Shown one piece after another: positions 27,241 through 64,000 of a DNA stretch of 64,000 nucleotides. The notes beneath the pieces were generated by a model. The model worked only from the letters and a program-made list of their open reading frames with translations, ran no database searches and was not told the origin of the DNA. The DNA is from Eunapius fragilis (taxonomy: Eukaryota > Porifera > Demospongiae > Spongillida > Spongillidae). Position 1 is the first letter of the stretch, and every line of letters begins with the position of its first letter. The stretch is from assembly GCA_963681505.1 (NCBI GenBank), contig OY811984.1, positions 237,501-301,500 of the forward strand, given 5' to 3'. The position numbers and the translations under genes were made by a program.

Positions 27241-27504
27241 TTTCTTCCATGTGTGCAGTGGTTTGCTCATATTGCTTGTCTCATCAACACCTCGATGCTA
27301 AGATAGTCAATAATTTCCCATACAAATGTATGGGTGGGAACCTACTTTTGAAACGCTTGGAAAACCCATACCAAAGCAGGTATGCTCGGGGTGGCATTAA
27401 AAAGAGATAGAGGAGTGGTTACTGCTATCTTCCATTTGTGCAGTGGTTTGCTCATATTGCATGTCTCATCAACACTCGATGCTAAGATAGTCAATAATTT
27501 CCCA
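27241..27504 (-). repeat. 185-bp satellite, inverted leading segment
   Basis: About one and a half monomers are in the opposite orientation to the main array. They meet it head-to-head at a CCCATGGG centre at 27501-27508. Confidence 0.92.
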
Positions 27505-30500: not shown

Positions 30501-33500
30501 ACTGCACACTTGGAAGATAGCAGTAACCACTCCTCTATCTCTTTTTAATGCCACCCCGAGCATACCTGCTTTGGTATGGGTTTACCAAGCGATTCAAAAG
30601 TAGGTTTCCACCAATACATTTCTATGGGAAATATAGACTATCTTAGCATCGATGTGTTGATGAGACATGCAATATGAGCAAACAGCTGCACACATGAAGT
30701 ATAGCAGTAAGCACTCCTCTATCTCCTTTTAATGCCACCCCGAGCATACCTGCTTTGGTATGGGTTTACCAAGCGATTCAAAAGTAGGTTCCCACACATA
30801 CATTTCTATGTGAAATATTGACTATCTTAGCATCGAGGTGTTGATGAGACATGCAATATGAGCAAACCACTGCACACAGGAAAGATAGCAGTAACCACTC
30901 CTCTATCTCCTTTAAATTCCACCTCAACTATACCTGCTTAGGTATGGGTTAACCAATCGATTCAAATGTAGGTTCCCACCCATACATTCCAATGGGAAAC
31001 CACCCATACATCTCAATGGGAAATATTGACTATCTTAGCATCGAGGTGTTGATGAGACATGCAATATGAGCAAACCACTGCACACTTGGAAGATAGCAGT
31101 AACCACTCCTCTATCTGTTTTAAATGCCACCCCGAGCATACCTGCTTTGGTATGGGTTTACCAAGCGATTCAAAAGTAGGTTCCCACCCATACATTTCTA
31201 TGGGAAATTTATGACTATCTTAGCATCGAGGTGTTGATGAGACATGCAATATGAGCAAACCACTGCACACTTGGAGGATAGCAGTAACCACTCCTCTATC
31301 TGTTTTAAATGCCACCCCGAGCATACCTGCTTCGGTATGGGTTAACCAAGCGATTCAAAAGTAGGTTCCCACCCATACATTCCTATGGGAAACCACCCAT
31401 ACATCTCTATGGGAAATATTGACTATCTTAGCATCGAGGTGTTGATGAGACATGCAATATGAGCAAACCACTGCACACTTGGAGGATGGCAGTAACCACT
31501 CCGCTATCTGTTTTAATTGCCACCCCGAGCATACCTGCTTCGGTATGGGTTAACCAAGCGATTCAAAAGTAGGTTCCCACCCATACATTCCAATGGGAAA
31601 CCACCCATACATCTCTATGGGAACTATTGACTATCTTAGCATCGAGGTGTTGATGATACATGCAATATGAGCAAACCACTGCACACATGGAAGATAGCAG
31701 TAACCACTCCTCTATCTCTTTTTAATGCCACCCCGAGCATACCTGCTTTGGTATGGGTTTACCAAGCGATTCAAAAGTAGGTTCCCACCCATACATTTCT
31801 ATGGGAAATTTTTGACTATCTTAGCATTGAGGTGTTGTTGAGACATGCAATATGAGCAAACCACTGCACACTTGGAAGATAGCAGTAACCACTCTTCTAT
31901 CTGTTTTAAATGCCACCCCGAGCATACCTGCTTCAGTATGGGTTAACCAAGCGATTCAAAAGTAGGTTCCCACCCATACATTCCTATGGGAAACCACCCA
32001 TACATCTCTATGGGAAATATTGACTATCTTAGCATCGAGGTGTTGATGAGACAAGCAATATGAGCAAGCCACTGCACACTTGGAAGATAGCAGTAACCAC
32101 TCCTCTATCTCTTTTTAATGCCACCCCGAGCATACCTGCTTTGGTATGGGTTTACCAAGCGATTCAAAAGTAGGTTTCCACCAATACATTTCTATGGGAA
32201 ATATAGACTATCTTAGCATCGATGTGTTGATGAGACATGCAATATGAGCAAACAGCTGCACACATGAAGTATAGCAGTAAGCACTCCTCTATCTCCTTTT
32301 AATGCCACCCCGAGCATACCTGCTTTGGTATGGGTTTACCAAGCGATTCAAAAGTAGGTTCCCACACATACATTTCTATGTGAAATATTGACTATCTTAG
32401 CATCGAGGTGTTGATGAGACATGCAATATGAGCAAACCACTGCACACAGGAAAGATAGCAGTAACCACTCCTCTATCTCCTTTAAATTCCACCTCAACTA
32501 TACCTGCTTAGGTATGGGTTAACCAATCGATTCAAATGTAGGTTCCCACCCATACATTCCAATGGGAAACCACCCATACATCTCAATGGGAAATATTGAC
32601 TATCTTAGCATCGAGGTGTTGATGAGACATGCAATATGAGCAAACCACTGCACACTTGGAAGATAGCAGTAACCACTCCTCTATCTGTTTTAAATGCCAC
32701 CCCGAGCATACCTGCTGCGGTATGGGTTAACCAAGCGATTCAAAAGTAGGTTCGGACCCATACATTTCTATGGGAAATTTATGACTATCTTAGCATCGAG
32801 GTGTTGATGAGACATGCAATATGAGCAAACCACTGCACACAAGGAAGATACCAGTAACCACTCCTCTATCTGTTTTAAATGCCACCCCGAGCATACCTGC
32901 TTCGGTATGGGTTAACCAAGCGATTCAAAAGAAGGATCCCACCCATACATTTCTATGGGAAATTTTTGACTATATTAGCATCGAGCTGTTGATGAGACAT
33001 GCAATATGAGCAAACCACTGCACACTTGGAAGATAGCAGTAACCACTCCTCTATCTGTTTAAAATGCCACCCCGAGCATATCTGCTTCGGTACGGGTTAG
33101 CCAAGCGATTCAAAAGTAGGTTCCCACCCATACATTCCTATGGGAAATTTTTGACTATCTTAGCATTGAGGTGTTGTTGAGACATGCAATATGAGCAAAC
33201 CACTGCGCACTTGGAAGATAGCAGTAACCACTCCTCTATCTGTTTTAAATGCCACCCCGAGCATACCTGCTTCGGTATGGGTTAACCAAGCGATTCAAAA
33301 GTAGGTTCCCACCCATACATTCCTATGGGAAACCACCCATACATCTCTATGGGAAATATTGACTATCTTAGCATCGAGGTGTTGATGAGACAAGCAATAT
33401 GAGCAAGCCACTGCACACTTGGAAGATAGCAGTAACCATTCCTCTATCTGTTTTAAATGCCACCCCGAGCATATCTGCTTTGGTATGGGTTTACCAAGCG

Positions 33501-36500
33501 ATTCAAAAGTAGGTTCCCACCCATACATTTCTATAGGAAATTTTTAACTATCTTAGCATCGAGGTGTTGATGAGACATGCAATATGAGCAAACCACTGCA
33601 CACATGAAACATAGCAGTAACCACTCCTCTATCTCCTTTTAATGCCACCCCGGCATACCTGCTTTGGTATGGGTTTACCAAGCGATTCAAAAGTAGGTTC
33701 CCACTCATACATTCCTATGGGAAACCACCCATACATCTCTATGGGAAATATTGACTATCTTAGCATCGAGGTGTTGATGAGACATGCAATATGAGCAAAC
33801 CACTGCACACTTGGAGGATGGCAGTAACCACTCCGCTATCTGTTTTAATTGCCACCCCGAGCATACCTGCTTCGGTATGGGTTAACCAAGCGATTCAAAA
33901 GTAGGTTCCCACCCATACATTCCAATGGGAAACCACCCATACATCTCTATGGGAACTATTGACTATCTTAGCATCGAGGTGTTGATGATACATGCAATAT
34001 GAGCAAACCACTGCACACATGGAAGATAGCAGTAACCACTCCTCTATCTCTTTTTAATGCCACCCCGAGCATACCTGCTTTGGTATGGGTTTACCAAGCG
34101 ATTCAAAAGTAGGTTCCCACCCATACATTTCTATGGGAAATTTTTGACTATCTTAGCATTGAGGTGTTGTTGAGACATGCAATATGAGCAAACCACTGCA
34201 CACTTGGAAGATAGCAGTAACCACTCTTCTATCTGTTTTAAATGCCACCCCGAGCATACCTGCTTCAGTATGGGTTAACCAAGCGATTCAAAAGTAGGTT
34301 CCCACCCATACATTCCTATGGGAAACCACCCATACATCTCTATGGGAAATATTGACTATCTTAGCATCGAGGTGTTGATGAGACAAGCAATATGAGCAAG
34401 CCACTGCACACTTGGAAGATAGCAGTAACCACTCCTCTATCTCTTTTTAATGCCACCCCGAGCATACCTGCTTTGGTATGGGTTTACCAAGCGATTCAAA
34501 AGTAGGTTTCCACCAATACATTTCTATGGGAAATATAGACTATCTTAGCATCGATGTGTTGATGAGACATGCAATATGAGCAAACAGCTGCACACATGAA
34601 GTATAGCAGTAAGCACTCCTCTATCTCCTTTTAATGCCACCCCGAGCATACCTGCTTTGGTATGGGTTTACCAAGCGATTCAAAAGTAGGTTCCCACACA
34701 TACATTTCTATGTGAAATATTGACTATCTTAGCATCGAGGTGTTGATGAGACATGCAATATGAGCAAACCACTGCACACAGGAAAGATAGCAGTAACCAC
34801 TCCTCTATCTCCTTTAAATTCCACCTCAACTATACCTGCTTAGGTATGGGTTAACCAATCGATTCAAATGTAGGTTCCCACCCATACATTCCAATGGGAA
34901 ACCACCCATACATCTCAATGGGAAATATTGACTATCTTAGCATCGAGGTGTTGATGAGACATGCAATATGAGCAAACCACTGCACACTTGGAAGATAGCA
35001 GTAACCACTCCTCTATCTGTTTTAAATGCCACCCCGAGCATACCTGCTTTGGTATGGGTTTACCAAGCGATTCAAAAGTAGGTTCCCACCCATACATTTC
35101 TATGGGAAATTTATGACTATCTTAGCATCGAGGTGTTGATGAGACATGCAATATGAGCAAACCACTGCACACTTGGAGGATAGCAGTAACCACTCCTCTA
35201 TCTGTTTTAAATGCCACCCCGAGCATACCTGCTTCGGTATGGGTTAACCAAGCGATTCAAAAGTAGGTTCCCACCCATACATTCCTATGGGAAACCACCC
35301 ATACATCTCTATGGGAAATATTGACTATCTTAGCATCGAGGTGTTGATGAGACATGCAATATGAGCAAACCACTGCACACTTGGAGGATGGCAGTAACCA
35401 CTCCGCTATCTGTTTTAATTGCCACCCCGAGCATACCTGCTTCGGTATGGGTTAACCAAGCGATTCAAAAGTAGGTTCCCACCCATACATTCCAATGGGA
35501 AACCACCCATACATCTCTATGGGAACTATTGACTATCTTAGCATCGAGGTGTTGATGATACATGCAATATGAGCAAACCACTGCACACATGGAAGATAGC
35601 AGTAACCACTCCTCTATCTCTTTTTAATGCCACCCCGAGCATACCTGCTTTGGTATGGGTTTACCAAGCGATTCAAAAGTAGGTTCCCACCCATACATTT
35701 CTATGGGAAATTTTTGACTATCTTAGCATTGAGGTGTTGTTGAGACATGCAATACGAGCAAACCACTGCACACTTGGAAGATAGCAGTAACCACTCTTCT
35801 ATCTGTTTTAAATGCCACCCCGAGCATACCTGCTTCAGTATGGGTTAACCAAGCGATTCAAAAGTAGGTTCCCACCCATACATTCCTATGGGAAACCACC
35901 CATACATCTCTATGGGAAATATTGACTATCTTAGCATCGAGGTGTTGATGAGACAAGCAATATGAGCAAGCCACTGCACACTTGGAAGATAGCAGTAACC
36001 ACTCCTCTATCTCTTTTTAATGCCACCCCGAGCATACCTGCTTTGGTATGGGTTTACCAAGCGATTCAAAAGTAGGTTTCCACCAATACATTTCTATGGG
36101 AAATATAGACTATCTTAGCATCGATGTGTTGATGAGACATGCAATATGAGCAAACAGCTGCACACATGAAGTATAGCAGTAAGCACTCCTCTATCTCCTT
36201 TTAATGCCACCCCGAGCATACCTGCTTTGGTATGGGTTTACCAAGCGATTCAAAAGTAGGTTCCCACACATACATTTCTATGTGAAATATTGACTATCTT
36301 AGCATCGAGGTGTTGATGAGACATGCAATATGAGCAAACCACTGCACACAGGAAAGATAGCAGTAACCACTCCTCTATCTCCTTTAAATTCCACCTCAAC
36401 TATACCTGCTTAGGTATGGGTTAACCAATCGATTCAAATGTAGGTTCCCACCCATACATTCCAATGGGAAACCACCCATACATCTCAATGGGAAATATTG

Positions 36501-39500
36501 ACTATCTTAGCATCGAGGTGTTGATGAGACATGCAATATGAGCAAACCACTGCACACTTGGAAGATAGCAGTAACCACTCCTCTATCTGTTTTAAATGCC
36601 ACCCCGAGCATACCTGCTGCGGTATGGGTTAACCAAGCGATTCAAAAGTAGGTTCGGACCCATACATTTCTATGGGAAATTTATGACTATCTTAGCATCG
36701 AGGTGTTGATGAGACATGCAATATGAGCAAACCACTGCACACAAGGAAGATACCAGTAACCACTCCTCTATCTGTTTTAAATGCCACCCCGAGCATACCT
36801 GCTTTGGTATGGGTTTACCAAGCGATTCAAAAGTAGGTTCCCACCCATACATTTCTATGGGAAATTTATGACTATCTTAGCATCGAGGTGTTGATGAGAC
36901 ATGCAATATGAGCAAACCACTGCACACTTGGAGGATAGCAGTAACCACTCCTCTATCTGTTTTAAATGCCACCCCGAGCATACCTGCTTCGGTATGGGTT
37001 AACCAAGCGATTCAAAAGTAGGTTCCCACCCATACATTCCTATGGGAAACCACCCATACATCTCTATGGGAAATTTTGACTATCTTAGCATCGAGGTGTT
37101 GATGAGACATGCAATATGAGCAAACCACTGCACACTTGGAAGATAGCAGTAACCACTCCTCTATCTGTTTTAAATGCCACCCCGAGCATATCTGCTTTGG
37201 TATGGGTTTACCAAGCGATTCAAAAGTAGGTTCCCACCCATACATTTCTATGGGAAATTTATGACTATCTTAGCATCGAGGTGTTGATGAGACATGCAAT
37301 ATGAGCAAACCACTGCACACATTGATGATACCAGTAACTACTCCTCTATCTGTTTTAAATGCCACCTCGAGCATACCTGCTTTGGTAAGGGGTTACCAAG
37401 CGATTCAAAAGTAGGTTCCCACCCATACATTTCTATGGGAAATTTATGACTATTTTAGCATCGAGGTGTTGATGAGTCATGCAATATGAGAAAACCACTG
37501 CACACTTGGAGGATTGCAGTGAACACTCCTCTATCTGTTTCAAATGCCACCCCGAGCATACCTGCTTCGGTATGGGTTAACCAAGCGATTCAAAAGTAGG
37601 TTCCCACCCATACATTTCTATGGGAAATTTTGGACTATATTAGCATCGAGGTGTTGATGAGACATGCAATATGAGCAAACCACTGCACACTTGGAAGATA
37701 GCAGTAACCACTCCTCTATCTGTTTTAAATGCCACCCCGAGCATACCTGCTTTGGTATGGGTTTACCAAGCGATTCAAAAGTAGGTTCCCACCCATACAT
37801 TTCTATGGGAAATTTATGACTATCTTAGCATCGAGGTGTTGATGAGACATGCAATATGAGCAAACCACTGCACACATTGAAGATACCAGTAACTACTCCT
37901 CTATCTGTTTTAAATGCCACCTCGAGCATACCTGCTTTGGTAAGGGTTTACCAAGCGATTCAAAAGTAGGTTCCCACCCATACATTTCTATGGGAAATTT
38001 ATGACTATCTTAGCATCGAGGTGTTGATGAGTCATGCAATATGAGAAAACCACTGCACACTTGGAGGATTGCAGTGAACACTCCTCTATCTGTTTCAAAT
38101 GCCACCCCGAGCATACCTGCTTCGGTATGGGTTAACCAAGCGATTCAAAAGTAGGTTCCCACCCATACATTTCTATGGGAAATTTTGGACTATATTAGCA
38201 TCGAGGTGTTGATGAGACATGCAATATGAGCAAACCACTGCACACTTGGAAGATAGCAGTAACCACTCCTCTATCTGTTTTAAATGCCACCCCGAGCATA
38301 CCTGCTTTGGTATGGGTTTACCAAGCGATTCAAAAGTAGGTTCCCACCCATACATTTCTATGGGAAATTTATGACTATCTTAGCATCGAGGTGTTGATGA
38401 GACATGCAATATGAGCAAACCACTGCACACATGGAAGATACCAGTAACTACTCCTCTATCTGTTTTAAATGCCACCTCGTGCATACCTGCTTTGGTAAGG
38501 GTTTACCAAGCGATTCAAAAGTAGGTTCCCACCCATACATTTCTATGGGAAATTTATGACTATCTTAGCATCGAGGTGTTGATGAGGCATGCAATATGAG
38601 AAAACCACTGCACAATTGGAGGATAGCAGTGAACACTCCTCTATCTGTTTCAAATGCCACCCTGAGCATACCTGCTTCGGTATGGGTTAACCAAGCGATT
38701 CAATAGTAGGTTCCCACCCATACATTTCTATGGGAAATTTTTGACTATATTAGCATCGAGGTGTTGATGAGACATGCAATATGAGCAAACCACTGCACAC
38801 TTGGAAGATAGCAGTAACCACTCCTCGATCTGTTTTAAATGCCACCCCGAGCATACCTGCTTCGGTATGGGTTAACCAAGCGATTCAAAAGTAGGTTCCC
38901 ACCCATACATTCCTATGGGAAACCACCCATACATCTCTACGGGAAATTTTGACTATCTTAGCATCGAGGTGTTGATGAGACATGCAATATGAGCAAACCA
39001 CTGCACACTTGGAAGATAGCAGTAACCACTCCTCTATCTGTTTTAAATGCCACCCCGAGCATATCTGCTTTGGTATGGGTTTACCAAGCGATTCAAAAGT
39101 AGGTTCCCACCCATACATTTCTATGGGAAATTTTTAACAATCTTAGCATCGAGGTGTTGATGAGACATGCAATATGAGCAAACCACTGCACACATGAAAC
39201 ATAGCAGTAACCACTCCTCTATCTCCTTTTAATGCCACCCCGAGCATACCTGCTTTGGTATGGATTTACCAAGCGATTCAAAAGTAGGTTCCCACTCATA
39301 CATTCCTATGGGAAACCACCCATACATCTCTATGGGAAATATTGACTATCTTAGCATCGAGGTGTTGATGAGACATGCAATATGAGCAAACCACTGCACA
39401 CTTGGAGGATACCAGTAACCACTCCTCTATCTGTTTTAAATGCCACCCCGAGCATACCTGCTTCGGTATGGGTTAGCCAAGCGATTCAAAAGTAGGTTCC

Positions 39501-42500
39501 CACCCATACATTCCTATGGGAAATTTTTGACTATCTTAGCATTGAGGTGTTGTTGAGACATGCAATATGAGCAAACCACTGCGCACTTGGAAGATAGCAG
39601 TAACCACTCCTCTATCTGTTTTAAATGCCACCCCGAGCATACCTGCTTCGGTATGGGTTAACCAAGCGATTCAAAAGTAGGTTCCCACCCATACATTCCT
39701 ATGGGAAACCACCCATACATCTCTATGGGAAATATTGACTATCTTAGCATCGAGGTGTTGATGAGACAAGCAATATGAGCAAGCCACTGCACACTTGGAA
39801 GATAGCAGTAACCATTCCTCTATCTGTTTTAAATGCCACCCCGAGCATATCTGCTTTGGTATGGGTTTACCAAGCGATTCAAAAGTAGGTTCCACCCATA
39901 CATTTCTATAGGAAATTTTTAACTATCTTAGCATCGAGGTGTTGATGAGACATGCAATATGAGCAAACCACTGCACACATGAAACATAGCAGTAACCACT
40001 CCTCTATCTCCTTTTAATGCCACCCCGGCATACCTGCTTTGGTATGGGTTTACCAAGCGATTCAAAAGTAGGTTCCCACTCATACATTCCTATGGGAAAC
40101 CACCCATACATCTCTATGGGAAATATTGACTATCTTAGCATCGAGGTGTTGATGAGACATGCAATATGAGCAAACCACTGCACACTTGGAGGATGGCAGT
40201 AACCACTCCGCTATCTGTTTTAATTGCCACCCCGAGCATACCTGCTTCGGTATGGGTTAACCAAGCGATTCAAAAGTAGGTTCCCACCCATACATTCCAA
40301 TGGGAAACCACCCATACATCTCTATGGGAACTATTGACTATCTTAGCATCGAGGTGTTGATGATACATGCAATATGAGCAAACCACTGCACACATGGAAG
40401 ATAGCAGTAACCACTCCTCTATCTCTTTTTAATGCCACCCCGAGCATACCTGCTTTGGTATGGGTTTACCAAGCGATTCAAAAGTAGGTTCCCACCCATA
40501 CATTTCTATGGGAAATTTTTGACTATCTTAGCATTGAGGTGTTGTTGAGACATGCAATATGAGCAAACCACTGCACACTTGGAAGATAGCAGTAACCACT
40601 CTTCTATCTGTTTTAAATGCCACCCCGAGCATACCTGCTTCAGTATGGGTTAACCAAGCGATTCAAAAGTAGGTTCCCACCCATACATTCCTATGGGAAA
40701 CCACCCATACATCTCTATGGGAAATATTGACTATCTTAGCATCGAGGTGTTGATGAGACAAGCAATATGAGCAAGCCACTGCACACTTGGAAGATAGCAG
40801 TAACCACTCCTCTATCTCTTTTTAATGCCACCCCGAGCATACCTGCTTTGGTATGGGTTTACCAAGCGATTCAAAAGTAGGTTTCCACCAATACATTTCT
40901 ATGGGAAATATAGACTATCTTAGCATCGATGTGTTGATGAGACATGCAATATGAGCAAACAGCTGCACACATGAAGTATAGCAGTAAGCACTCCTCTATC
41001 TCCTTTTAATGCCACCCCGAGCATACCTGCTTTGGTATGGGTTTACCAAGCGATTCAAAAGTAGGTTCCCACACATACATTTCTATGTGAAATATTGACT
41101 ATCTTAGCATCGAGGTGTTGATGAGACATGCAATATGAGCAAACCACTGCACACAGGAAAGATAGCAGTAACCACTCCTCTATCTCCTTTAAATTCCACC
41201 TCAACTATACCTGCTTAGGTATGGGTTAACCAATCGATTCAAATGTAGGTTCCCACCCATACATTCCAATGGGAAACCACCCATACATCTCAATGGGAAA
41301 TATTGACTATCTTAGCATCGAGGTGTTGATGAGACATGCAATATGAGCAAACCACTGCACACTTGGAAGATAGCAGTAACCACTCCTCTATCTGTTTTAA
41401 ATGCCACCCCGAGCATACCTGCTGCGGTATGGGTTAACCAAGCGATTCAAAAGTAGGTTCGGACCCATACATTTCTATGGGAAATTTATGACTATCTTAG
41501 CATCGAGGTGTTGATGAGACATGCAATATGAGCAAACCACTGCACACAAGGAAGATACCAGTAACCACTCCTCTATCTGTTTTAAATGCCACCCCGAGCA
41601 TACCTGCTTTGGTATGGGTTTACCAAGCGATTCAAAAGTAGGTTCCCACCCATACATTTCTATGGGAAATTTATGACTATCTTAGCATCGAGGTGTTGAT
41701 GAGACATGCAATATGAGCAAACCACTGCACACTTGGAGGATAGCAGTAACCACTCCTCTATCTGTTTTAAATGCCACCCCGAGCATACCTGCTTCGGTAT
41801 GGGTTAACCAAGCGATTCAAAAGTAGGTTCCCACCCATACATTCCTATGGGAAACCACCCATACATCTCTATGGGAAATTTTGACTATCTTAGCATCGAG
41901 GTGTTGATGAGACATGCAATATGAGCAAACCACTGCACACTTGGAAGATAGCAGTAACCACTCCTCTATCTGTTTTAAATGCCACCCCGAGCATATCTGC
42001 TTTGGTATGGGTTTACCAAGCGATTCAAAAGTAGGTTCCCACCCATACATTTCTATGGGAAATTTATGACTATCTTAGCATCGAGGTGTTGATGAGACAT
42101 GCAATATGAGCAAACCACTGCACACATTGAAGATACCAGTAACTACTCCTCTATCTGTTTTAAATGCCACCCCGAGCATATCTGCTTTGGTATGGGTTTA
42201 CCAAGCGATTCAAAAGTAGGTTCCCACCCATACATTTCTATGGGAAATTTATGACTATCTTAGCATCGAGGTGTTGATGAGACATGCAATATGAGCAAAC
42301 CACTGCACACTTGGAAGATAGCAGTAACCACTCCTCTATCTGTTTTAAATGCCACCCCGAGCATACCTGCTTTGGTATGGGTTTACCAAGCGATTCAAAA
42401 GTAGGTTCCCACCCATACATTTCTATGGGAAATTTATGACTATCTTAGCATCGAGGTGTTGATGAGACATGCAATATGAGCAAACCACTGCACACATGGA

Positions 42501-43743
42501 AGATACCAGTAACTACTCCTCTATCTGTTTTAAATGCCACCTCGTGCATACCTGCTTTGGTAAGGGTTTACCAAGCGATTCAAAAGTAGGTTCCCACCCA
42601 TACATTTCTATGGGAAATTTATGACTATCTTAGCATCGAGGTGTTGATGAGGCATGCAATATGAGAAAACCACTGCACAATTGGAGGATAGCAGTGAACA
42701 CTCCTCTATCTGTTTCAAATGCCACCCTGAGCATACCTGCTTCGGTATGGGTTAACCAAGCGATTCAATAGTAGGTTCCCACCCATACATTTCTATGGGA
42801 AATTTTTGACTATATTAGCATCGAGGTGTTGATGAGACATGCAATATGAGCAAACCACTGCACACTTGGAAGATAGCAGTAACCACTCCTCGATCTGTTT
42901 TAAATGCCACCCCGAGCATACCTGCTTCGGTATGGGTTAACCAAGCGATTCAAAAGTAGGTTCCCACCCATACATTCCTATGGGAAACCACCCATACATC
43001 TCTACGGGAAATTTTGACTATCTTAGCATCGAGGTGTTGATGAGACATGCAATATGAGCAAACCACTGCACACTTGGAAGATAGCAGTAACCACTCCTCT
43101 ATCTGTTTTAAATGCCACCCCGAGCATATCTGCTTTGGTATGGGTTTACCAAGCGATTCAAAAGTAGGTTCCCACCCATACATTTCTATGGGAAATTTTT
43201 AACAATCTTAGCATCGAGGTGTTGATGAGACATGCAATATGAGCAAACCACTGCACACATGAAACATAGCAGTAACCACTCCTCTATCTCCTTTTAATGC
43301 CACCCCGAGCATACCTGCTTTGGTATGGATTTACCAAGCGATTCAAAAGTAGGTTCCCACTCATACATTCCTATGGGAAACCACCCATACATCTCTATGG
43401 GAAATATTGACTATCTTAGCATCGAGGTGTTGATGAGACATGCAATATGAGCAAACCACTGCACACTTGGAGGATACCAGTAACCACTCCTCTATCTGTT
43501 TTAAATGCCACCCCGAGCATACCTGCTTCGGTATGGGTTAACCAAGCGATTCAAAAGTAGGTTCCCACCCATACATTCCAATGGGAAACCACCCATACAT
43601 CTCTATGGGAAATATTGACTATCTTAGCAACGAGGTGTTGATGATACATGCAATATGAGCAAACCACTGCACACATGGAAGATAGCAGTAACCACTCCTC
43701 TATCTCTTTTTAATGCCACCCCGAGCATACCTGCTTTGGTATG

Positions 43744-43978
43744 TTCGGTAGCAAGATCACTTGCTAGTTTCTGGCGAGAAACATCAAAACGTAAGTGTGA
43801 CAAAATATTTAATTTTTCTAAAGTGCAGGGAAGAGAGGTCCCTGCCGCCTTGAAAGATTCGCAACCAGAGGTTGCCATAGTGAAGTGTTGGTGTGTAAAG
43901 ATGGTTGACTGAAATAAATTTAATTGAAAAAGCCAAACATGTTTCGGCCTTACTGGCCTTCATCAGTGGCAAAACGTC
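43744..43978 (-). mobile_element. 235-bp retroelement-like insert with hammerhead motif, inside the satellite
   Basis: Non-satellite DNA splits a monomer between GGTATG and TACCAAGCG. On the minus strand it opens with a hammerhead-ribozyme motif, then after about 50 bp has an ATG (43876-43878) and 45 open codons starting MATSGCESFKAAGTSLPC before the satellite resumes. A hammerhead followed by a coding start is the arrangement known in Penelope-like elements and some hammerhead-bearing retroelements. The 5' end of such an element is the best guess; only a fragment is present. Confidence 0.6.
43932..43970 (-). ncRNA. Hammerhead ribozyme-type motif (minimal, short stem III)
   Basis: The minus strand reads GCCA-CTGATGA, then A-GGCC-AGTAA-GGCC (stem II), GAAA, CAT, GTT and TGGC. 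All the conserved core is present (CUGAUGA and GAAA). GCCA and UGGC pair as stem I, and GGCC pairs with GGCC as stem II. Stem III is reduced to about one C-G pair, and the cleavage triplet would be GUU. This compact form is typical of hammerheads in Penelope-like retroelements. Activity is not shown by sequence. Confidence 0.7.
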
Positions 43979-44766
43979 TACCAAGCGATTCAAAAGTAGG
44001 TTTCCACCCATACATTTTTATGGGAAATTGTTGACTATCTTAGCATCGAGGTGTTGATGAGACATGGAATATGAGCAAACCACTGCACACTTGGAGGATA
44101 GCAGTAACCACTCCTCTATCTGTTTTAAATGCCACCCCGAGCATACCTGCTTTGGTATGGGTTAACCAAGCGATTCAAAAGTAGGTTCCCACCCATACAT
44201 TTCTATGGGAAATTGTTGAGTATCTATGCATCGAGGTGTTGATGAGACATGCAATATGAGCAAACCACTGCACACATGGAAGATAGCAGTAACCACTCCT
44301 CTATCTGTTTTAAATGCCACCCCGAGTATGCCTGCTTTGGTATGGGTTTACCAAGCGATTCAAATGTAGGTTCCCACCCATACATTTCAATGGAAAATTT
44401 TTGACTATCTTAGCATCGAGGTGTTGATGAGACATGCAATATGAGCAAACCACTGCACACATGGAAGATAGCAGTAACCACTCATCTATCTCTTTTTAAT
44501 GCCACCCCGAACATACCTGCTTCGGTATGGGTTAACCAAGCGATTCAAAAGTAGGTTCCCTCCCATACATTCCTATGGGAAACCACCCATACATCTCTAT
44601 GGGAAATATTGACTATCTAAGCATCGAGGTGTTGATGAGACATGCAATATGAGCAAACCACTGCACACTTGGAAGATAGCAGTAACCACTCCTCTATCTG
44701 TTCTAAATGCCACCCCGAGCATACCTGCTTTGGTATGGGTTTACCAAGCGATTCAAAAATAGGTTC

Positions 44767-47700
44767 TATCAATGACTACTACAGGAGTCATATGTCAATA
44801 TGTATGACTCCCGCAGGAGTTAGCAATCTCCATGTATGACTCCTGCAGGAGTCAAATATGTCACTATGAATGACTCCTGCAGGAGTCACATATTTCAATA
44901 TATGACTCCTGCAGGAGTGAAGTATTTCAATGAATGACTCCAGCAGGAGTGAAGAATGTCAATATGTATGACTCTTGCAGGAGTCAAGGATATCCATACA
45001 TGACTCCTGCAGGAGTCAAGTATTTCAATGTATGACTCCCGCACGAGTCAAGTATTTCAATGTATGACTCCTGCAGGAGTCTAATACGTCAATATGTATG
45101 ACTCCTGCAAGAGTCAAGTATCTCCATGCATGACTCCTGCAGGAGTCAAGTATGTCAGAATGTATGAGTCCTGCAGGAGTCAAGTATGTCAATATGTATG
45201 ACTCCTGTAGGTGTCAACTATATATTTGCATGACTCCTGCAGGAGTCAAGTATCTCAGTTTGTATGACTGCTGCAGGAGTCAAATATGTTTCAGCGTATG
45301 ACTCCTGCAATATGTTTCAATGTATGATATGTTTCAATGTATGACTCCGACAAGAGTCATGTTTGTTAGTATGCATGACTCCTGCAGGAGTCAAATATTT
45401 CAATGAATGACTCCTGCAGGAGTAAAGCATGTCAATATGTATGACTCCTCCAGGAGTCATGTATCTCCATGCATGACTCCTGCAGGAGTCAAGTAGGCCA
45501 GTATGTATGACTCCTGCATGAGTCAACTATATATTTGCATGACTCCTGCAGGAGTCAAGTATGTCAGTATGCAAGACTACTGCAGGAGTCTAGTATCTCC
45601 ATGCATGACTCCTGCTGGAGTCAAGTATGTCAGTATGTATGACTCCTGTAGGAGTCAAGTATGTCACTCAAGAATTTCAATGTATGACTCCTGCAGGAGT
45701 CAAATGTTTCAATTATGACTCCTGCAGAAGTCAAGTATGTCAATATGTCTGACTCCTGCAGGAGTGAAGTATTTCAATGTATGACTTCTGCATGAGTCAA
45801 GTATTTCAATATGAATGACTCCTGCAGGAGTCTAGTATGTCAGTATGCATGACTCCTGCAAGAATCAACTATATATTTGCATGACTCCAGCAGGAGTCAA
45901 GTATGTAAGTATGCAAGACTCCTGCAGGAGTCAAGTATCTCATTGCATGACTCCTGCAGGAGTCAAGTATCTCCAAGCATGACTCCTGCAGGAGTCAAGT
46001 ATGTCAGTATGTATGACTCCTGCAGGAGTCAAGTATGGCACTCAAGTATTTCAATGTATGACTCCTGCAGGAGTCAATTATTTCAATTATGACTCCTGCA
46101 GGAGTCAAGTATGTCAATATGTATGACTACTGCAGGAGTCAAGTATTTCAATATATGACTCCTGCAGGAGTCAAGTATTTCAATATGTATGACTCCTGCA
46201 GGAGTTAAGTATCTCCATGTATGACTCCTGAAGGAGTCAAGTATGTCAGTATCAATGACTACTACAGGAGTCATTTGTCAATATGTATGACTCCTGCAGG
46301 AGTGAGCAATCTCCACGTATGACTCCCGCAGGAGTCAAATATGTCACTATGAATGACTCCTGCAGGAGTCACATATTTCAATATATGACTCCTGCAGGAG
46401 TGAAGTAATTCAATGAATGACTCCTGCGGGAGTCAAGAATGTCAATATGTATGACTCTTGCAGGAGTCTAGGATATCCATACATGACTCCTGCAGGAGTC
46501 AAGTATTTCAATGTATGACTCCCGCAGGAGTCACGTATTTCAATGTATGACTCCTGCAGGAGTCTAATATGTCAATATGTATGACTCCTGCAATAGTCAA
46601 GTATCTCCATGCATGACTCCTGCAGGAGTCAAGTATGTCAGAATGTATGAGTCCTGCAGGAGTCAAGTATGTCAATATGTATGACTCCTGTAGGAGTCAA
46701 CTATATGTTTGCATGACTCCTGCAGGAGTCAAGTATGTCAGTTTGTATGACTGCTGCAGGAGTCAAATATGTTTCAATGTATGACTCCTGCAATATGTTT
46801 CAATGTATGATTTGTTTCAATGTATGACTCCTACAAGAGTCATGTTTGACAGTATGCATGACTCCTGCAGGAGTCAAATATTTCGATCAATGAATGACTC
46901 CTGCAGGAGTAAAGTATGTCAGTATGTATGACTCCTCCAGGAGTCATGTATCTCCATGCATGACTCCTGCAGGAGTCAAGTATGCCAGTATGTATGACTC
47001 CTGCATGAGTCAACTATATATTTGCATGACTCCTGCAGGAGTCAAGTATGTCAGTATGCAAGACTCTTGCAGGAGTCTAGTATCTCCATGCATGACTCCT
47101 GCAGGAGTCAAGTATGTCAGTATGTATGACTCCTGCAGGAGTCAAGTATGTCACTCAAGATTTTCAATGGATGACTCCTGCAGGAGTCAAGTATGTCAAT
47201 ATGTCTGACTCCTGCAGGAGTCAAGTATTTCAATGTATGACTCCTGCATGAGTCAAGTATTTCAATATGTATGACTCCTGCAGGAGTCTAGTATGTCAGT
47301 ATGCATGACTCCTGCAAGAGTCAACTATATATTTGCATGACTCCTGCACGAGTCAAGTACGTAAGTATGCAAGACTCCTGCAGGAGTCAAGTATCACATT
47401 GCATGACTCCTGCAGGAGTCAAGTATCTCCAAGCATGACTCCTGCAGGAGTCAAGTATGTCAGTATGTATGACTCCTGCAGGAGTCAAGTATGTCACTCA
47501 AGTATTTCAATGTACGACTCCTGCAGGAGTCAATTATTACAATTATGACTCCTGCAGGAGTCAAGTATGTCAATATGTCTGACTACTGCAGGAGTCAAGT
47601 ATTTCAATGTATGACTCCTGCAGGAGTCAAGTATTTCAATATGTATGACTCCTGCAGGAGTCAAGTATGTTAGTATGTATGACTCCTGCAGGAGTCAACT

Positions 47701-48912
47701 ATATATTTGCATGACTGCTGCAGGAGTCAAGTATGTCAGTATGCAAGACTCCTGCAGCAGTCAAGTATCTCAATGTATGACTCCTGCAGGAGTCAAGTAT
47801 CTCCAAGCATGACTCCTGCAGGAGTCAAGTATGTCAGTATGTATGATACCTGCAGGAGTCAAGTATATCACTCAAGAATTTCAATGTATGACTCCTGCAG
47901 GAGCCAAGTATGTCAATATGTCTGACTCCTGCAGGAGTCAAGTATTTCAATGTATGACTCCTGCAGGAGTCAAATATGTCAATATGTATGACTCCTGCAA
48001 GAGTCATGTATCTGCATGCATGACTCCTGCAGGAGTCAAGTATTTCAGTATCAATGACTACAGCAGGAGTCATATGTCAATTTGTCTGACTCCTACAGGA
48101 GTGAGCAATCTCCACGTATGACTCCTGCAGGAGTCAAGTATGTCAGACTGTATGAGTCCTGCAGGAGTCAAGTATGTCAATATGTATGACTCCTGCAGGA
48201 GTCAACTATATATTTGCATGACTCCTGCAGGAGTCAAGTATGTCAGATTGGATGAGGGCTGCAGGAGTCAAATATTTCACAATGAATGACTCCTGCAGGA
48301 GTCAAGTATTTCAATGCATGACTCCTATAAGAGTCAAGTTTGTCAGTATGCATGACTCCTGCAGGAGTCAAATATTTCAATGAATGACTCCTGCAGGAGT
48401 AAAGTATGTCTATATGTATGACTCCTCCAGGAGTCATGTATCTCCATGCATGAATCCTGCAGGAGTCAAGTATGTCAGTATGTAGGACTCCTGCAGGAGT
48501 CAAATATATATTTGCATGACTCCTGCAGGAGTCAAGTATGTCAGTATGCAAGACTCCTGCAGGAGTCAAGTATCTCAATGTATGACTCCTGCAGGAGTCA
48601 AGTATCTCCATGCATGACTCCTGCAGGAGTCAAGTATGTCAGTATGTATGACTCCTGCAGGAGTCAAGTATGTCACTCAAGAATTATTTCAATGAATAAC
48701 TCCTGCAGGAGTCAAGTATTTCAATTATGACTCCTGCAGGAGTCAAGTATTTCAATATGTATGACTCCTGCAGGAGTCAGATATGTCAATACGTATGACT
48801 CCTGCAGGAGTCAGATATGTCAATATGTATGACTCCTGCAAGAGTCAAGTATCTCCATGCATGACTCCTGCAGGAGTGATGTATGTCAGTATGAATGACT
48901 CCTGCAGGAGTC
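44767..48912 (+). repeat. ~31-bp minisatellite built on a 16-18-bp perfect palindrome (block P1)
   Basis: Each unit carries GACTCCTGCAGGAGTC, often extended to TGACTCCTGCAGGAGTCA, separated by AT-rich spacers of a few kinds such as AAGTATGTCAGTATGTA, AAGTATTTCAATGTA, AAGTATCTCCATGCA and AACTATATATTTGCA. The spacer order itself repeats, giving a higher-order unit of about 1.48 kb (for example 44770 and 46253). Confidence 0.96.
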
Positions 48913-51900
48913 ATGCATAGTTACAGATTGGTTCCGCGAAAGTGCTGCAATTAGTCGCAGCGTGCCGAATTGTGCCGAATATGTTGTAGATTGATCCGGC
49001 AAAAGTGCACCAATCCGTCGCAGCGGGCCGAATTGCGCTGAATTGATACAGATTGAACCTGTGAAAGTGCAGCAATCGGTCGCAGTGCGCCGAATTGCGC
49101 CGAATTGTTGCAGATTGATCCGGCGATTGTGCAGCAATCTGTTGCAGTGCGCCGAATTGTTATATATTGATCTCGCGAAAGTGCATTAATCCGTCGCAGC
49201 GCGCCGAATTAGCGCTGAATTGTTACGGATTGATGCGGTGAAAGTGCAGCAATCAGTTGCAGCGCGCCGAATTGTTACAGATTGAACCCGTGAAAGTGCA
49301 GCAATCGGTCGCAGCGCGCCGAAATGTGCCGAATTGTTGCAGATTGATGAAGCGAAAGTGCAGCAATCCGTCGCAGCGCGCCGAATTGCGCCGAATTGTT
49401 ACAGATTGGTCCAACCATGTGCACCAATCCGTCCCAGCGCGCTGAATTGCGCCGTAATGTTGCAGATTGATCCCGCAAAAGTGCAGCAATCCGTCTCAGC
49501 GCACTGAATTGTTACAAATTGGTTGTTCCGCCAAAGTGCTGCAATCCGTCGCAGCGCGCCGAATTGCGCCAAATTGTTACAGATTGATCCAGCAAAAGTG
49601 CACCAATCCGTTGCACCGCGCCGAATTGCGCTGAATTGTTACAGATGGAACCCGTGAAAGTGCAGCAATCGGTCGCAGCGCGCCGAATTGTGCCGAATTG
49701 TTACAGATTGGTCCAGCCGAAGGGCACCAATCCGACCAAGTGCCCCGAATTGCGCCGAATTGTTGCAGATTGATGCCGCCATAGTGAAGCAATCGGTCGC
49801 AGCGCGCCGAATTGCCCCGAATTGTTGCAGATTGATCCGGCGAAAGAGCAGTAATCCGTCGCAGCGCGCCGAATTGCGCCAAATTGTTACAGATTGGTCC
49901 AACCAAAGTGCACCAATCCGTTAAAACGCGCCGAATTGCGCCGAGATGTTGCAGATTGATCCCGCAGAAGTGCAGCAATCCGTCTCAGCGCGCCGAATAG
50001 TTACAAATTGGTTCCTCCAAAGTGCTGCAATCTGTCACAGCACGCCGAATTGTTGCAGATTGATCCCGCCAAAGTGCAGCAATCCGTCGCAGCGCGCCAA
50101 ATTTCGCAGAATTGGTACAGATTGATCCCGTGAATGTGCAGCAATCGGTCGCAGCGCGCTAAATTGCACCAAATTGTTGCAGATTGATCACGCGAAAGTT
50201 CTACAATCCGTCATAGCGCGCTGAATTGCGCCGAAATGTTACAGATTGGTTCCGCGAAAGTGCTGCAATCCATCGCAGCGCGCTGAATTGTTCCGAATTG
50301 TTGCAGATTGATCCCGCAATAGTGCACCAATCCGTCGCAGCGCGCCGAATTGCGGTGAATTGTTACAGATTGAACCCATGAAAGTGCAGCAATCGGTCGC
50401 AGCGCGCCGAATTGCACCAAATTGTTGCAGATTGATCACGCGAAAGTTCTACAATCCGTCATAGCGCGCCGAATTGCGCCGAATTGTTACAGATTGGTTC
50501 CGCGAAAGTGCTGCAATTCGTCGCAGTGCGCCGAATTGTTCTGAATTGTTGCAGATTGATCCCGCAAAAGTGCACCAATCCGTCGCAGAGCGCCGAATTG
50601 CGCTGAATTGTTACAGATTGAACCCGTGAAAGTGCAGCAATCGGTCGCAGCGTGCCGAAATGTGCCAAATTGTTGCAGATTGATCACGCGAAAGTGAAGC
50701 AATCCGTCGCAGCGCGCCGAATTGCGCCGAATTGTTACAGATTGGTCCAACCAAAGTGCACCAATCCGTCCCAGCGCGCCGAATTGCGCCAAAATGTTGC
50801 AGATTGATCACGCGAAAGTGAAGCAATCCGTCGCAGCGCGCCGAATTGCGCCGAATTGTTACAGATTGGTCCAACCAATGTGCACCAATCCGTCGCACAG
50901 CGACGAATTGCGCTGAATTGTTACAGATTGAACCCGTGAAAGTGCAGCAATCGGTCGCAGCGCGCCGAATTGTGCCGAATTGTTACAGATTGATCATGCG
51001 AAAGTGCAGGAATCCGTCGCAGCGCGCCGAATTGCGCTGAATTGTTACAGATTGATCCGGTGAAAGTGCAGCAATCCATTGCTGCGCGCCGAATTATTAC
51101 AGATTGGTTCCTCCAAAGTGCAGCAATCGGTCGCAGCGCGCCGAATTGCGCCAAATTGTTGTAGTTTAATCACGCGAAAAATCTACAATCCGTCATAGCG
51201 CGCCGAATTGCGCCGAAATGTTACAGATTGGTTCCGCGAAAGTGCTGCAATCCGTCGCAGCGCCCCGAATTGTTTTGAATTGTTGCAGATTGATCCCGCA
51301 AAAGTGCACCAATCCGTCGCAGCGCGCCGAATTGCGCTGAATTGTTATAGATTGAACCCGTGAAAGTGCAGCAATCGGTCGCAGCGTGCCGAAATGTGCC
51401 AAATTGTTGCTGATTGATCACGCGAAAGTGCAGCAATCCGTCGCAGCGCGCCGAATTGCGCCGAATTGTTACAGATTGGTCCAACCAAAGTGCACCAATC
51501 CGTCCCAGCGCGCCGAATTGCGCCGAAATGTTGCAGATTGATCCCGCAAAAGTGCAGCAATCTTTCTCAGCGCGCCGAATTGTTACAAATTGGTTCCACC
51601 AAAGTGCTGCAATCCGTCGCAGCGCGCCGAATTGCGCCAAATTGTTACAGATTGATCCCGCAAAAGTGCACCAATCCGTCGCACAGCGCCGATTTGCGCT
51701 GAATTGTTACAGATTGAACCCGTGAAAGTGCAGCAATCGGTCGCAGCGCGCCGAATTGTGCCGAATTGTTACAGATTGATCATGCGAAAGTGCAGGAATC
51801 AGTCGCAGCGCGCCGAATTGCGCTCAATTGTTACAGATTGATCCGGTGAAAGTGCAGCAATCCATTGCTGCGTGCCGAATTGTTACAGATTGGTTCCGCG

Positions 51901-52140
51901 AAAGTGCTGAAATCCATCGCAGCGCGCCGAATTGTGCCGAATTGTTGCAGATTGATCCCGCAAAAGTGCACAAATCCGTCGCAGTGCGCCGAATTGCGCT
52001 GAATTGTTACAGATTGAACCCGTGAAAGTGCAGCAATCGGTCGCAGCGCGCTGAATTGTGCTGAATTGTTGCAGATTGATCCCACGATCATGCAGCAATC
52101 CGTTGCAGCGTGCCGAAATGCACCGAATTGTTACAGATTG
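48913..52140 (+). repeat. 62-bp satellite (block R1, about 52 monomers)
   Basis: The monomer begins GCGCCGAATTGCGCCGAATT, followed by GTTACAGATTGATCCCGCGA and AAGTGCAGCAATCCGTCGCA. It contains an internal duplication of GCGCCGAATT. Variants with one or both copies change the local period. Long open frames on both strands follow from the repeat and are not genes. Confidence 0.96.
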
Positions 52141-53358
52141 GAGGAGTCAAGTATCTCCAAGCATGATTCCTGTAGGCTACAAGTATGTCAGAATGTATGA
52201 CTCCTGCAGGAGTCAAGTATGTCACTCAAGTATTTCAATGTATGACTCCTGCAGGAGTCAATTATTTCAATTATGACTCCTGGAGGAGTCAAGTATGTCA
52301 ATATGTCTGACTCCTGCAGGAGTCAAGTATTTCAATGTATGACTCCTGCAGGAGCCAAGTATTTCAATATGTATGACTCCTGAAGGAGTCAAGTATCACC
52401 ATGAACGACTCCTGAAGGAGTCAAGTATGTCAGTATCAATGACTACTACAGGAGTCATATGTCAATATGTATGACTCCTGCAGGAGTGAGCAATCTCCAT
52501 GTATGACTCCTGCAGGAGTCAAATATGTCACTATGAATGACTCCTGCAGGAGTCACGTATTTCAGTATGTATGACTCCTGCAGGAGTCAAGTATCTCCAT
52601 GTATGACTCCAGAAGGAGTCAAGTATGTCAGTATGCAAGACTCCTGCAGGAGTCAAGTATCTCAATGTATGACTCCTGCAGGAGTCAAGTATCTCCATGC
52701 ATGACTCCTGCAGGAGTCAAGTATGTCAGTATGTATGACTCCTGCAGGAGTCAAGTATGTCACTCAAGAATTATTTCAATGTATGACTCCTGCAGGAGTC
52801 AAGTATGTCACTCAAGAATTATTTCAATGTATGACTCCTGCAGGAGTCAAGTATTTCAATTATGACTCCTACAGGAGTCAAGTATTTCAATATGTATGAC
52901 TCCTGCAGGAGTCAAGTATGTCAGTATGTATGACTCCTGCATGAGTCAACTACATGTTTGCATGACTCCTGCAGGAGTCAAGAATTTCAATGTATGACTC
53001 CTGCAGGAGTCAAGTATGTCAGTATGTATGACTCCTGCAGGAGTCAAGTATGTCACTCAAGAATTATTTCAATGTATGACTCCTGCAGGAGTCAAGTATT
53101 TCAATTATGACTCCTGCAGGAGTCAAGTATTTCAATATGTATGACTCCTGCAGGAGTCAAGTATGTCAGTATGTATGACTCCTGCAGGAGTCAACTATAT
53201 GTTTGCCTGACTCCTGTAGGAGTCATGTATTTCAATGTATGACTCCTGCAGGAGTCAAATATGTCAATATGTATCACTCCTGCAAGAGTCAAGTATCTCC
53301 ATGCATGACTCCTGCAGGAGTCAAGTATGTCAGTATGAATGACTCCTGAAGGAGTCAT
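52141..53358 (+). repeat. Palindrome minisatellite, second block (P2)
   Basis: Same GACTCCTGCAGGAGTC unit and same spacer families as P1, including the start motif CAATGACTACTACAGGAGTC at 52437. Confidence 0.95.
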
Positions 53359-55132
53359 GCATAGTTACAGATTGGTTCCGCGAAAGTGCTGCAGTCCGTC
53401 GCAGCGTGCCGAATTGTGCTGAATTTTTGCAGATTGAACCCGTGAAAGTGCAGCAATCGGTCGCAGCGCGCCGAATTGCGCCGAATTGTTACAGATTGAT
53501 CCCGTGAAAGTGCAGCAATCCGTCGCAGCGCGCCGAATTGCGCTGAGTTGTTACAGATTGATCCCGTGAATGTGCAGCAATGGGTCGCATCACGCCGAAT
53601 TGCGCCGAATTGTTACAGATTGGTCCAGCCGAAGGGCACCAATCCGTCCATGCGCCCCGACTTGCGCCGAATTGTTGCAGATTGATCCCGCCATAGTGAA
53701 GCAATCGGTCGCAGCGCGCCAAATTGCCCCGAATTGTTGCAGATTGATCCGCCAAAAGTGCAGTAATCAGTCGCAGCGCGCCGAACTGCGCCAAATTGGT
53801 ACAGATTGGTCCAACCAAAGTGCACCAATCCGTCCCAGCGCGCCGAATTGCGCCGAAATGTTGCAGATTGATCCCGCAACAGTGCAGCAATCCGTCTCAG
53901 CGCGTCGAATTGTTACAAATTGGTTCTCGCCAAAGTGCTTCAATCCGTCGCAGCGCGCCGAATTGCGCCAAATTGTTACAGATTGATCCCGTAAAAGTGC
54001 ACCAATCCATCGCACTGCGCCGAATTGCGCTGAATTGTTACAGATTGAATCCGTAAAAGTGCAGCAATCGGTCGCAGCGCGCCAAATTGTGCCGAACTGT
54101 TTCAGATTGGTCCAGCTAAAGTGCACCAATCCGTTCCCGCGCGCCGAACTACGCGGAATTGGTACAGATTGATCCCGTGAATGAGCAGCAATCGGTCGCA
54201 GCGCGCCGAATTGCTACGAATTGTTACAGATTGGTCCAGCCGAAGGGCACCAATCCGTCCATGCACGCCGAATTACGCCGAATTGTTGTAGATTGATCCC
54301 GCCATAGTGAAGCAATCGGTCTCAGCGCGCCGAATTACCCCGAAATGTTGCAGATTGATCCTGCGATAGTGCAGCAATCCTTTGCAGCACGCCGAATTGT
54401 TACAGATTGGTTCCGCGAAAGTGCTGCAATCCGTCGCAGCGCGCCGAATTGCGCCAAATTGTTACAGATTGATCCTGCAAATATGCACCAATCCGTCGCA
54501 GCGCGTCGAATTGCGCCGAATTGTTGCAGATTGATCCCGCGAAAGTGCAGCAATCCGTCGCATCACTCCGAATTGCACCGAATTGTTACAGATTGGTCCA
54601 ATCAAAGTGCACCAATCCGTTCCAGCGCGCCGAATTGCGCCGAATATTTGCAGATTGATCCCGTGAAAGTGCAGCAATCCGTCGCAGCGCGCCAAAATGT
54701 TGCAGATTGATACGGCGAAAGTGCAGCTATCCGTCGCAGCGCGCCGAAATGCGCCGTATTGTTACAGATTGGCCCAGCTAAAGAGCACCAATCCGTTCCA
54801 GCGCGCCGAATTACGTCGAATTGTTGCAAATTGATCCCGTGAAAGTGCAGCAATTGGTCGCAGCGCACCGAATTGCGCAGAATTGTTGCAGATTGATCCT
54901 GCGAAAGTGCAGCAATCGGTCGCAGCGCGCCGAATTGCGCCAAAATGTCAAAGATTGGTCCAACCAAAGTGCACCAATCCGTCCCAGCGCGCCGAATTGC
55001 GCCGAATTGTTGCAGATTGATCCCGCGAAAGTGCAGCAATCCTTTGCAGCGCGCCGAATTTCGCTGAATTGGTACAGATTGATCCCGTGAATGTGCTTCA
55101 ATCGGTCGCAGCGCACCGAATTGCACAGAATT
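53359..55132 (+). repeat. 62-bp satellite, second block (R2)
   Basis: It starts with the same junction sequence as R1 (GCATAGTTACAGATTGGTTC) and continues with the same 62-bp monomers, somewhat more diverged. Confidence 0.95.
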
Positions 55133-63600: not shown

Positions 63601-64000
63601 AGATAGTCAAAAATTTCCCATAGAAATGTATGGGTGGGAACCTACTTTTGAGTTGATTGTTAAAGCCACACCAAAGCTTATATGGCTGAGCTGACATCAA
63701 TTATAGAAAGTGGGATGGTCCCTGCTATCATCCAAGTGTGCAGTGGTTTACTAGTACTAGAAGCCTCATCAACACCTGGATGCTACGATAGTCAATATTT
63801 CCCAAAGAGATGTATGGGTGGTTTCCCATAGGAATGTATGGGTGGGAACCTACTTTTGAATCGCTTGGAAAACCGATACCAAAGCAGGCATGCCCGGGGT
63901 GGCATTAAAAAGTGATAGAGGTGTGGTTACTGCTATCTTCCATGTGTGCAGTGGTTTGCTCATATTCCAAGTCTCATCAACACCTCCATGCTAAGATAGT
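57637..64000 (-). repeat. Inverted satellite array of dimeric (393 bp) and trimeric (578 bp) higher-order units
   Basis: Monomer A is the inverted 185-bp satellite. Monomer B is a diverged relative with TTGTTAAAGCCACACCAAAG and GGCTGAGCTGACATCAATTA. Successive B starts at 57807, 58201, 58594, 58987, 59380 and 59773 are spaced 393 bp. Those at 60351, 60929 and 61507 are spaced 578 bp (one extra A monomer). Both spacings then alternate (61900, 62478, 62871, 63264, 63657). The array runs off the window. Confidence 0.95.

What the first reader, a model, noticed from the sequence alone, without database searches (positions are those of the whole stretch)
44767..53358. Array of about 160 perfect TGACTCCTGCAGGAGTCA palindromes at ~31-bp spacing
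The palindrome is far better conserved than the AT-rich spacers, across more than 5 kb in two blocks. The arms TGACTC and GAGTCA look like bZIP/AP-1-type half-sites. Regular spacing near three helical turns would place sites on one DNA face. This is what one would expect of a selected protein-binding array, or of a repeat spread by a hairpin-based mechanism.
Basis: partly seen in the sequence, partly recalled or inferred. Interest (0 to 1): 0.7.

Follow-up and report, generated by a model that had tools for sequence, protein, structure and literature searches.

The report
Satellite DNA with palindromic core
The array is one stretch of an abundant tandem repeat (satellite DNA) in what looks like a freshwater sponge genome, each unit built around the same 18-letter palindrome; it is a largely ordinary kind of repeat, with only weak signs that the palindrome itself is selected.

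Summary
The array is real but overstated. The window holds 72 perfect palindromes (155 with up to 3 mismatches) in two blocks, 44773-48913 and 52164-53357, spaced 34 or 32 bp, with a 62-bp satellite between them. The host genome (219 Mb; one contig looks like a demosponge mitochondrion) has 17,690 perfect copies, an estimated 1.3 Mb of arrays, seen on 14 of 24 contigs and often near contig ends. It is satellite DNA: alternating 32/34-bp units, higher-order repeats, and cassettes shared between chromosomes.

The strong palindrome/spacer contrast is mostly inherited. Within 27 arrays the palindrome varies 0.22-0.62 times as much as the spacer. Among recent duplicates the ratio is 0.72 (95% CI 0.55-0.91), and in one array without obvious higher-order structure 0.50. 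Some constraint or homogenisation therefore remains. Compensatory arm changes are rare, though about twice the chance expectation. Reversion is the same in palindrome and spacer. Successive sites do not share a helical face. The AP-1/bZIP reading is weak: 5 full sites in 5,335 bp, and the G of the half-site belongs to the most variable pair. An origin in LTR enhancers was tested and rejected.

Verdict: a new family of a known kind.

The parts
44773..48913 (+). Palindrome-core satellite, block 1: 121 palindromes with up to 5 mismatches, 51 of them perfect
52164..53357 (+). Palindrome-core satellite, block 2: 35 palindromes with up to 5 mismatches, 21 of them perfect; a truncated unit precedes it at about 52145
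44773..46255 (+). Higher-order repeat copy 1; its first 17 units match those from 46256 with 23 differences in 603 bases
48914..52140 (+). 62-bp satellite between the two blocks, used as a non-palindromic control
53358..55130 (+). The same 62-bp satellite after block 2; the block-to-62-bp junction is the same as at 48913
27504..44766 (+). 185/208-bp satellite directly to the left of block 1

Best explanation
It is satellite DNA: a tandem repeat of an 18-bp palindrome plus a 14- or 16-bp AT-rich spacer, mostly alternating, so the working unit is about 66 bp. Shown here: the arrays carry higher-order repeats, are abundant, lie on many contigs (often near the ends), and share junctions and an inserted cassette across chromosomes. 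Inferred: they grow by unequal exchange and segmental duplication and spread by exchange between chromosome ends. The palindrome looks far better conserved than the spacer chiefly because several spacer types existed before the blocks were amplified, while all types share one palindrome. What is left, palindrome variation 0.5-0.7 times the spacer's, I attribute (inferred) to homogenisation, since every neighbour can serve as template for the same palindrome, and perhaps to weak selection on the core. No act of its own is needed to explain the array.
For: Copy number 17,690 exact in the genome, about 38,600 units, 1.30 Mb, 0.59% by extrapolation from 2,635 non-randomly chosen units. Spacer lengths 14 and 16 alternate in 1,680 of 2,117 transitions. 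Higher-order repeats: 17 units at 44773 against 46256 differ at 23 of 603 bases. Block-to-62-bp junction at 9 places on C7, C13, C14, C19; an 869-874-bp cassette between blocks in six measured gaps on C8, C13, C19, C22. Palindrome/spacer ratio rises with relatedness: 0.72-0.76 in the five lowest divergence bins, 0.31-0.39 in the four bins from 0.10 to 0.30. Recent singletons 101 of 14,742 against 123 of 12,838 site-copies. At spacer positions that are themselves well conserved the difference is not significant (89 of 14,229 against 62 of 7,660, p = 0.12). Reversion to consensus 10:2 in palindrome, 9:2 in spacer.
Against: The recent ratio is still below 1 (CI 0.55-0.91), and with spacer base-specific rates 148 palindrome singletons are expected against 101 seen. 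An array without obvious higher-order structure gives 0.50 (CI 0.35-0.68, 69 units); detection bias explains only about 4-8%. The best 18-bp block of the non-palindromic 62-bp satellite differs less from its rest (ratio 0.62) than the palindrome does in the window (0.26). Complementary double changes exceed expectation (37 against 19.1). So selection on the palindrome is not excluded.
Confidence: 0.72

Rival explanations
1. The palindrome is a selected binding site for a dimeric protein (centromere, subtelomere or chromatin factor), and arrays persist because they carry many sites.
For: Palindrome less variable than spacer in each of 27 arrays, in recent duplicates and in the C5 array; complementary changes 37 against 19.1 expected; same core on different spacer families.
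Against: Variability of mirror positions is not significantly correlated (r 0.27, permutation p 0.25). The AP-1 form is unsupported. Arrays are not one per chromosome: C7 alone has marker clusters at 0.12, 0.74, 9.82 and 10.07 Mb, which does not look like one centromere per chromosome.
Confidence: 0.15
2. The palindrome is a hairpin or cruciform that promotes amplification, inversion or repair of its own units.
For: As single-stranded DNA it folds into a 7-bp stem with a TGCA loop, -5.2 to -5.9 kcal/mol, z about -3.3. Inverted stretches occur in L025 and L031 and a head-to-head junction in L036, some with switch points in palindromes.
Against: Reversion to the perfect arm is no commoner than reversion in spacers (10:2 against 9:2). 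Few orientation switches were seen (3 of 32 blocks flagged, one probably a misreading), and palindromes make up over half of the array anyway.
Confidence: 0.1
3. The array derives from enhancer repeats in the LTR of a retrotransposon.
For: On C5 an array directly abuts an LTR with a primer-binding-like site and a gag-like frame (reading by eye).
Against: Array lies on both sides of that element, with a 4-bp TATG target duplication, and 0 of 10 other LTR flanks examined (of 40 listed matches) hold a palindrome. The element was inserted into the array.
Confidence: 0.01

Closest known systems
Satellite DNA with higher-order repeats and short inverted repeats (e.g. Tribolium madens TmSat1/TmSat2, PMC13081366, passages seen)
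   Same: Tandem, abundant, higher-order repeats, short inverted repeats in each subunit, satellites intermingled with conserved transition zones.
   Different: Shorter monomer (32/34 bp), a perfect 18-bp palindrome instead of scattered inverted repeats under 10 bp, arrays often near contig ends, different animal phylum (host inferred).
Repetitive hairpin-forming elements of sponge mitochondrial DNA (PMC2800124, passages seen; PMC7800867, whole text)
   Same: Short perfect or near-perfect inverted repeats, many copies; the same genome's mitochondrial contig carries such hairpins (first 10 kb examined).
   Different: Nuclear, in regular tandem arrays; no copy of this palindrome in the 10 kb of mitochondrial DNA examined.
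CENP-B box satellites (recalled)
   Same: A short conserved motif inside each satellite unit.
   Different: The CENP-B box is not an 18-bp perfect palindrome (recalled); several arrays per chromosome here; no binder or centromere mark tested.
CRISPR arrays (recalled)
   Same: Regular palindromic repeats with spacers of even length.
   Different: Spacers are not unique (one 16-mer occurs 12 times); nuclear eukaryotic DNA.

Membership tests
Satellite DNA | Head-to-tail tandem units | tested here: met
Satellite DNA | High copy number over many chromosomes | tested here: met
   17,690 exact copies; listed places on 14 of 24 contigs (lists capped at 100 places)
Satellite DNA | Concerted evolution or higher-order repeats | tested here: met
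Satellite DNA | Located in heterochromatin | not testable with these tools
   no chromatin data
bZIP/AP-1 binding array | Full TGA(C/G)TCA or TGACGTCA sites | tested here: not met
   5 and 0 in 5,335 bp
bZIP/AP-1 binding array | Half-site bases most constrained | tested here: not met
   pair 2/17 most variable of nine
bZIP/AP-1 binding array | Binding of a bZIP dimer | not testable with these tools
   needs an experiment
Mobile hairpin element (RHE-like) | Dispersed single insertions | tested here: inconclusive
   one isolated copy met (L001); the capped lists do not allow a genome-wide count
Mobile hairpin element (RHE-like) | Compensatory stem changes | tested here: inconclusive
   37 complementary of 2,148 changed cells, 19.1 expected; 14 contexts by my count
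Centromeric satellite with CENP-B-like box | One main array site per chromosome | tested here: inconclusive
   several clusters on C7, C2, C13, but lists are capped and array sizes unknown
Centromeric satellite with CENP-B-like box | Centromere protein binding | not testable with these tools
   needs ChIP
LTR enhancer repeat | Array inside the LTR of most copies | tested here: not met
   0 of 10 flanks
CRISPR array | Unique spacers | tested here: not met

The most novel reading that the evidence does not exclude
The palindrome is a long-lived dyad binding site of an unknown sponge chromosome-end or centromere protein: arrays rise and fall and their spacers drift, but units with an intact dyad are preferentially kept, which would make this the first motif-defined functional satellite in a sponge. 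(First is my guess; one search is the main literature search made on sponge satellites, and it listed 12 of 409 papers, none on sponges by title; one search listed 15 of 178, none on sponges by title.)
Probability: 0.12. Interest if true: 0.62.

Novelty: new member of a known kind. Interest (0 to 1): 0.3.

Why it matters
Palindrome-cored satellites make it possible to ask whether a short dyad is kept by selection, by gene conversion or by inheritance. The ratio of palindrome to spacer change as a function of duplicate age (0.72-0.76 recent, 0.31-0.39 old) shows how a strong-looking conservation contrast can be mostly inherited. The family also gives a marker for chromosome ends and exchange between them in a freshwater sponge (host inferred).

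Tried and rejected
Rejected: common helical face; AP-1 sites; arm-to-arm repair, because reversions are equal in palindrome and spacer; LTR enhancer origin; CRISPR-like array; structured RNA or tRNA in the window (0 Rfam matches at gathering score; 0 tRNA); relatives in viral contigs (0 exact matches to the 18-mer) and in prokaryote contigs (0 exact matches to a 23-mer). The exact 18-mer is in 0 papers of the library (one search). Host naming: Spongilla lacustris odSpoLacu1.1 (PMC12141999, passages: 248.7 Mb, 23 chromosomes, longest scaffold 31.14 Mb, mitochondrion 28.04 kb) does not match this assembly (218.9 Mb; C1, the longest contig seen, 24.99 Mb; C24 28,504 bp), so the species is left open.

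Limits: the 2,635 units come from 32 blocks in 20 loci chosen by markers and junctions, not at random; blocks under 5 units and the last unit of each block were dropped. Loci L002-L007 were left out of that set; by their coordinates they lie within the window or within L016-L019. The 62-bp control used 49 of 69 parsed units. Pair counts (4,773 pairs) are not independent. In one search the sixth closest run gave ratio 4.25, which I put down to the damaged unit at 52164. The two markers differ: 90 of 100 listed places (117 in all on both strands) lie within 1 Mb of a contig end for the first, 52 of 100 (278 in all, list stops at C7) for the second. (a rarer spacer variant) matched only at 3 places, all in the window.
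Full report
Where it is. The window is C14:237501-301500 of a genome of 218,937,333 bases in 24 contigs. C24 is 28,504 bp. In its first 10 kb ARAGORN finds six tRNAs, the frames read by eye as cox2, atp8, atp6 and cox3 under code 4, and there are many inverted repeats with arms of 8 bp or more. That fits a demosponge mitochondrial genome; 28 kb with hairpin repeats between genes fits freshwater sponges (PMC7800867, whole text). The species is not fixed: the published Spongilla lacustris assembly differs in size and longest scaffold (PMC12141999, passages). Only one of the six contig starts fetched besides C24, that of C13, begins with telomere-like CCCTAA repeats.

The observation. 72 perfect palindromes, 131 with at most 1 mismatch and 155 with at most 3, lie in 44773-48913 and 52164-53357. 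Intervals are 34 (70 of 154) and 32 (63 of 154). Between and after the blocks lies a 62-bp satellite, and to the left a 185/208-bp satellite. The left ends of the two blocks differ, but both blocks end in the same junction with the 62-bp satellite.

Genome context. There are 17,690 exact copies. Two variants of the palindrome served as location markers. The first gave 117 places, 100 listed, in 20 clusters, 17 of them within 1 Mb of a contig end (21% expected from length). The second gave 278 places, 100 listed, ending at C7, in 19 clusters, 10 of them within 1 Mb (13% expected). So arrays are enriched near contig ends, with clear interior exceptions (C1 4.8 and 5.5 Mb, C2 6.3 Mb, C3 12.1 Mb). 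The junction with the 62-bp satellite recurs at 9 places on C7, C13, C14 and C19. A cassette of 869-874 bp with fold-back sequences lies between blocks in six measured gaps on C8, C13, C19 and C22. These shared structures show copying between chromosomes.

Unit anatomy. Over 2,635 units in 32 blocks of 20 loci, 1,207 palindromes are perfect. Spacers are mainly 14 bp (1,223) or 16 bp (1,125), alternating in 1,680 of 2,117 transitions. Spacer variation is uneven: in the 14-bp class four positions have a majority base at 0.43-0.71, while others reach 0.94-0.97, as high as palindrome positions (0.91-0.99). Those variable positions define spacer types that recur in higher-order repeats.

Is the palindrome selected? 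Within 27 arrays of at least 30 units the palindrome/spacer ratio of pairwise difference is 0.22-0.62. Homologous 12-unit blocks were binned by divergence on alternate units and measured on the others. The ratio is 0.72-0.76 in the five bins below 0.05, then 0.65, 0.52, 0.39, 0.35, 0.37 and 0.31, and 0.15 in a last bin of five. In clusters of recent copies singletons number 101 of 14,742 palindrome site-copies and 123 of 12,838 spacer site-copies, ratio 0.715, cluster-bootstrap CI 0.55-0.91. Restricted to consensus-majority sites, and in spacers to well-conserved positions, it is 89 of 14,229 against 62 of 7,660, ratio 0.77, p 0.12. With spacer base-specific rates 148 palindrome singletons would be expected against the 101 seen. 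On C5 an array without obvious higher-order structure (69 units) gives 0.50, CI 0.35-0.68. Detection bias lowers the ratio by about 4-8% at such divergence. As a yardstick, the best 18-bp stretch of the non-palindromic 62-bp satellite deviates 0.62 times as much as the rest; in the window the palindrome gives 0.26. I conclude that most of the contrast is inherited type structure and that a 1.4- to 2-fold slower change of the palindrome is real, by selection or by homogenisation. These data do not separate the two.

Dyad tests. Of 2,148 unit-pair cells with a change, 37 are complementary double changes (19.1 expected by independence) and 39 other double changes; non-mirror position pairs show 434 against 411.6. 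By my count the 37 fall in 14 sequence contexts, so few are independent. Other perfect palindromes make up 18 of 1,225. Variability of mirror positions correlates at r 0.27, p 0.25. Reversions to consensus are 10:2 in palindromes and 9:2 in spacers. Phase coherence at 10.5 bp is that of random positions over 5 units (0.406 against 0.401); of the helical repeats tried, 11 bp gives the highest coherence (0.88), as expected from a spacing near 33. The single strand can fold into a 7-bp hairpin.

Rejected origin. On C5 the array abuts a short LTR. The retrotransposon has array on both sides and a 4-bp target duplication, and 0 of 10 other flanks of this LTR (of 40 matches) carry the palindrome. 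It is an insertion into the array and not its source.

Verdict. A palindrome-cored satellite DNA family, new as a family as far as one exact-string paper search shows, of a known kind. A dimer-binding function stays possible but unproven.

Noticed in passing
window 27265-63958: The 185-bp satellite occurs in both orientations: a 29-base probe (up to 5 mismatches) matches 93 times forward (27532-57534) and 21 times reversed (27265, 27450 and 57716-63958), a large inverted arrangement.
   Followed up: partly
window 55135-56650: A GGTAGT/GGGATT-type simple-repeat array of about 1.5 kb sits between the 62-bp and the 185-bp satellites.
   Followed up: no
window 20715-21542 (-): Frame with an integrase core domain (Pfam PF24764, E 2.3e-66), probably a transposon gene.
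   Followed up: no
window 24749-25792 (-): Frame with a partial HECT ubiquitin-ligase domain (PF00632, E 3.1e-08).
   Followed up: no
L020 1826-2694 and L016, L017, L021, L030, L035: A cassette of 869-874 bp with fold-back sequences between palindrome blocks on C8, C13, C19 and C22.
   Followed up: partly
L001 1501-1518 (C1:634491): A single perfect palindrome outside any array, between two fold-back elements.
   Followed up: no
L036 about 1380-1430 (C2:15975882-15975927), L031 and L025: Head-to-head or inverted stretches of the palindrome array.
   Followed up: partly
L026 (C24): Mitochondrial contig with many perfect inverted repeats in its first 10 kb.
   Followed up: partly
L039-L041 (C5:1671501-1681500): LTR retrotransposon copy inserted in a palindrome array; 40 scored LTR matches genome-wide.
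   Followed up: yes
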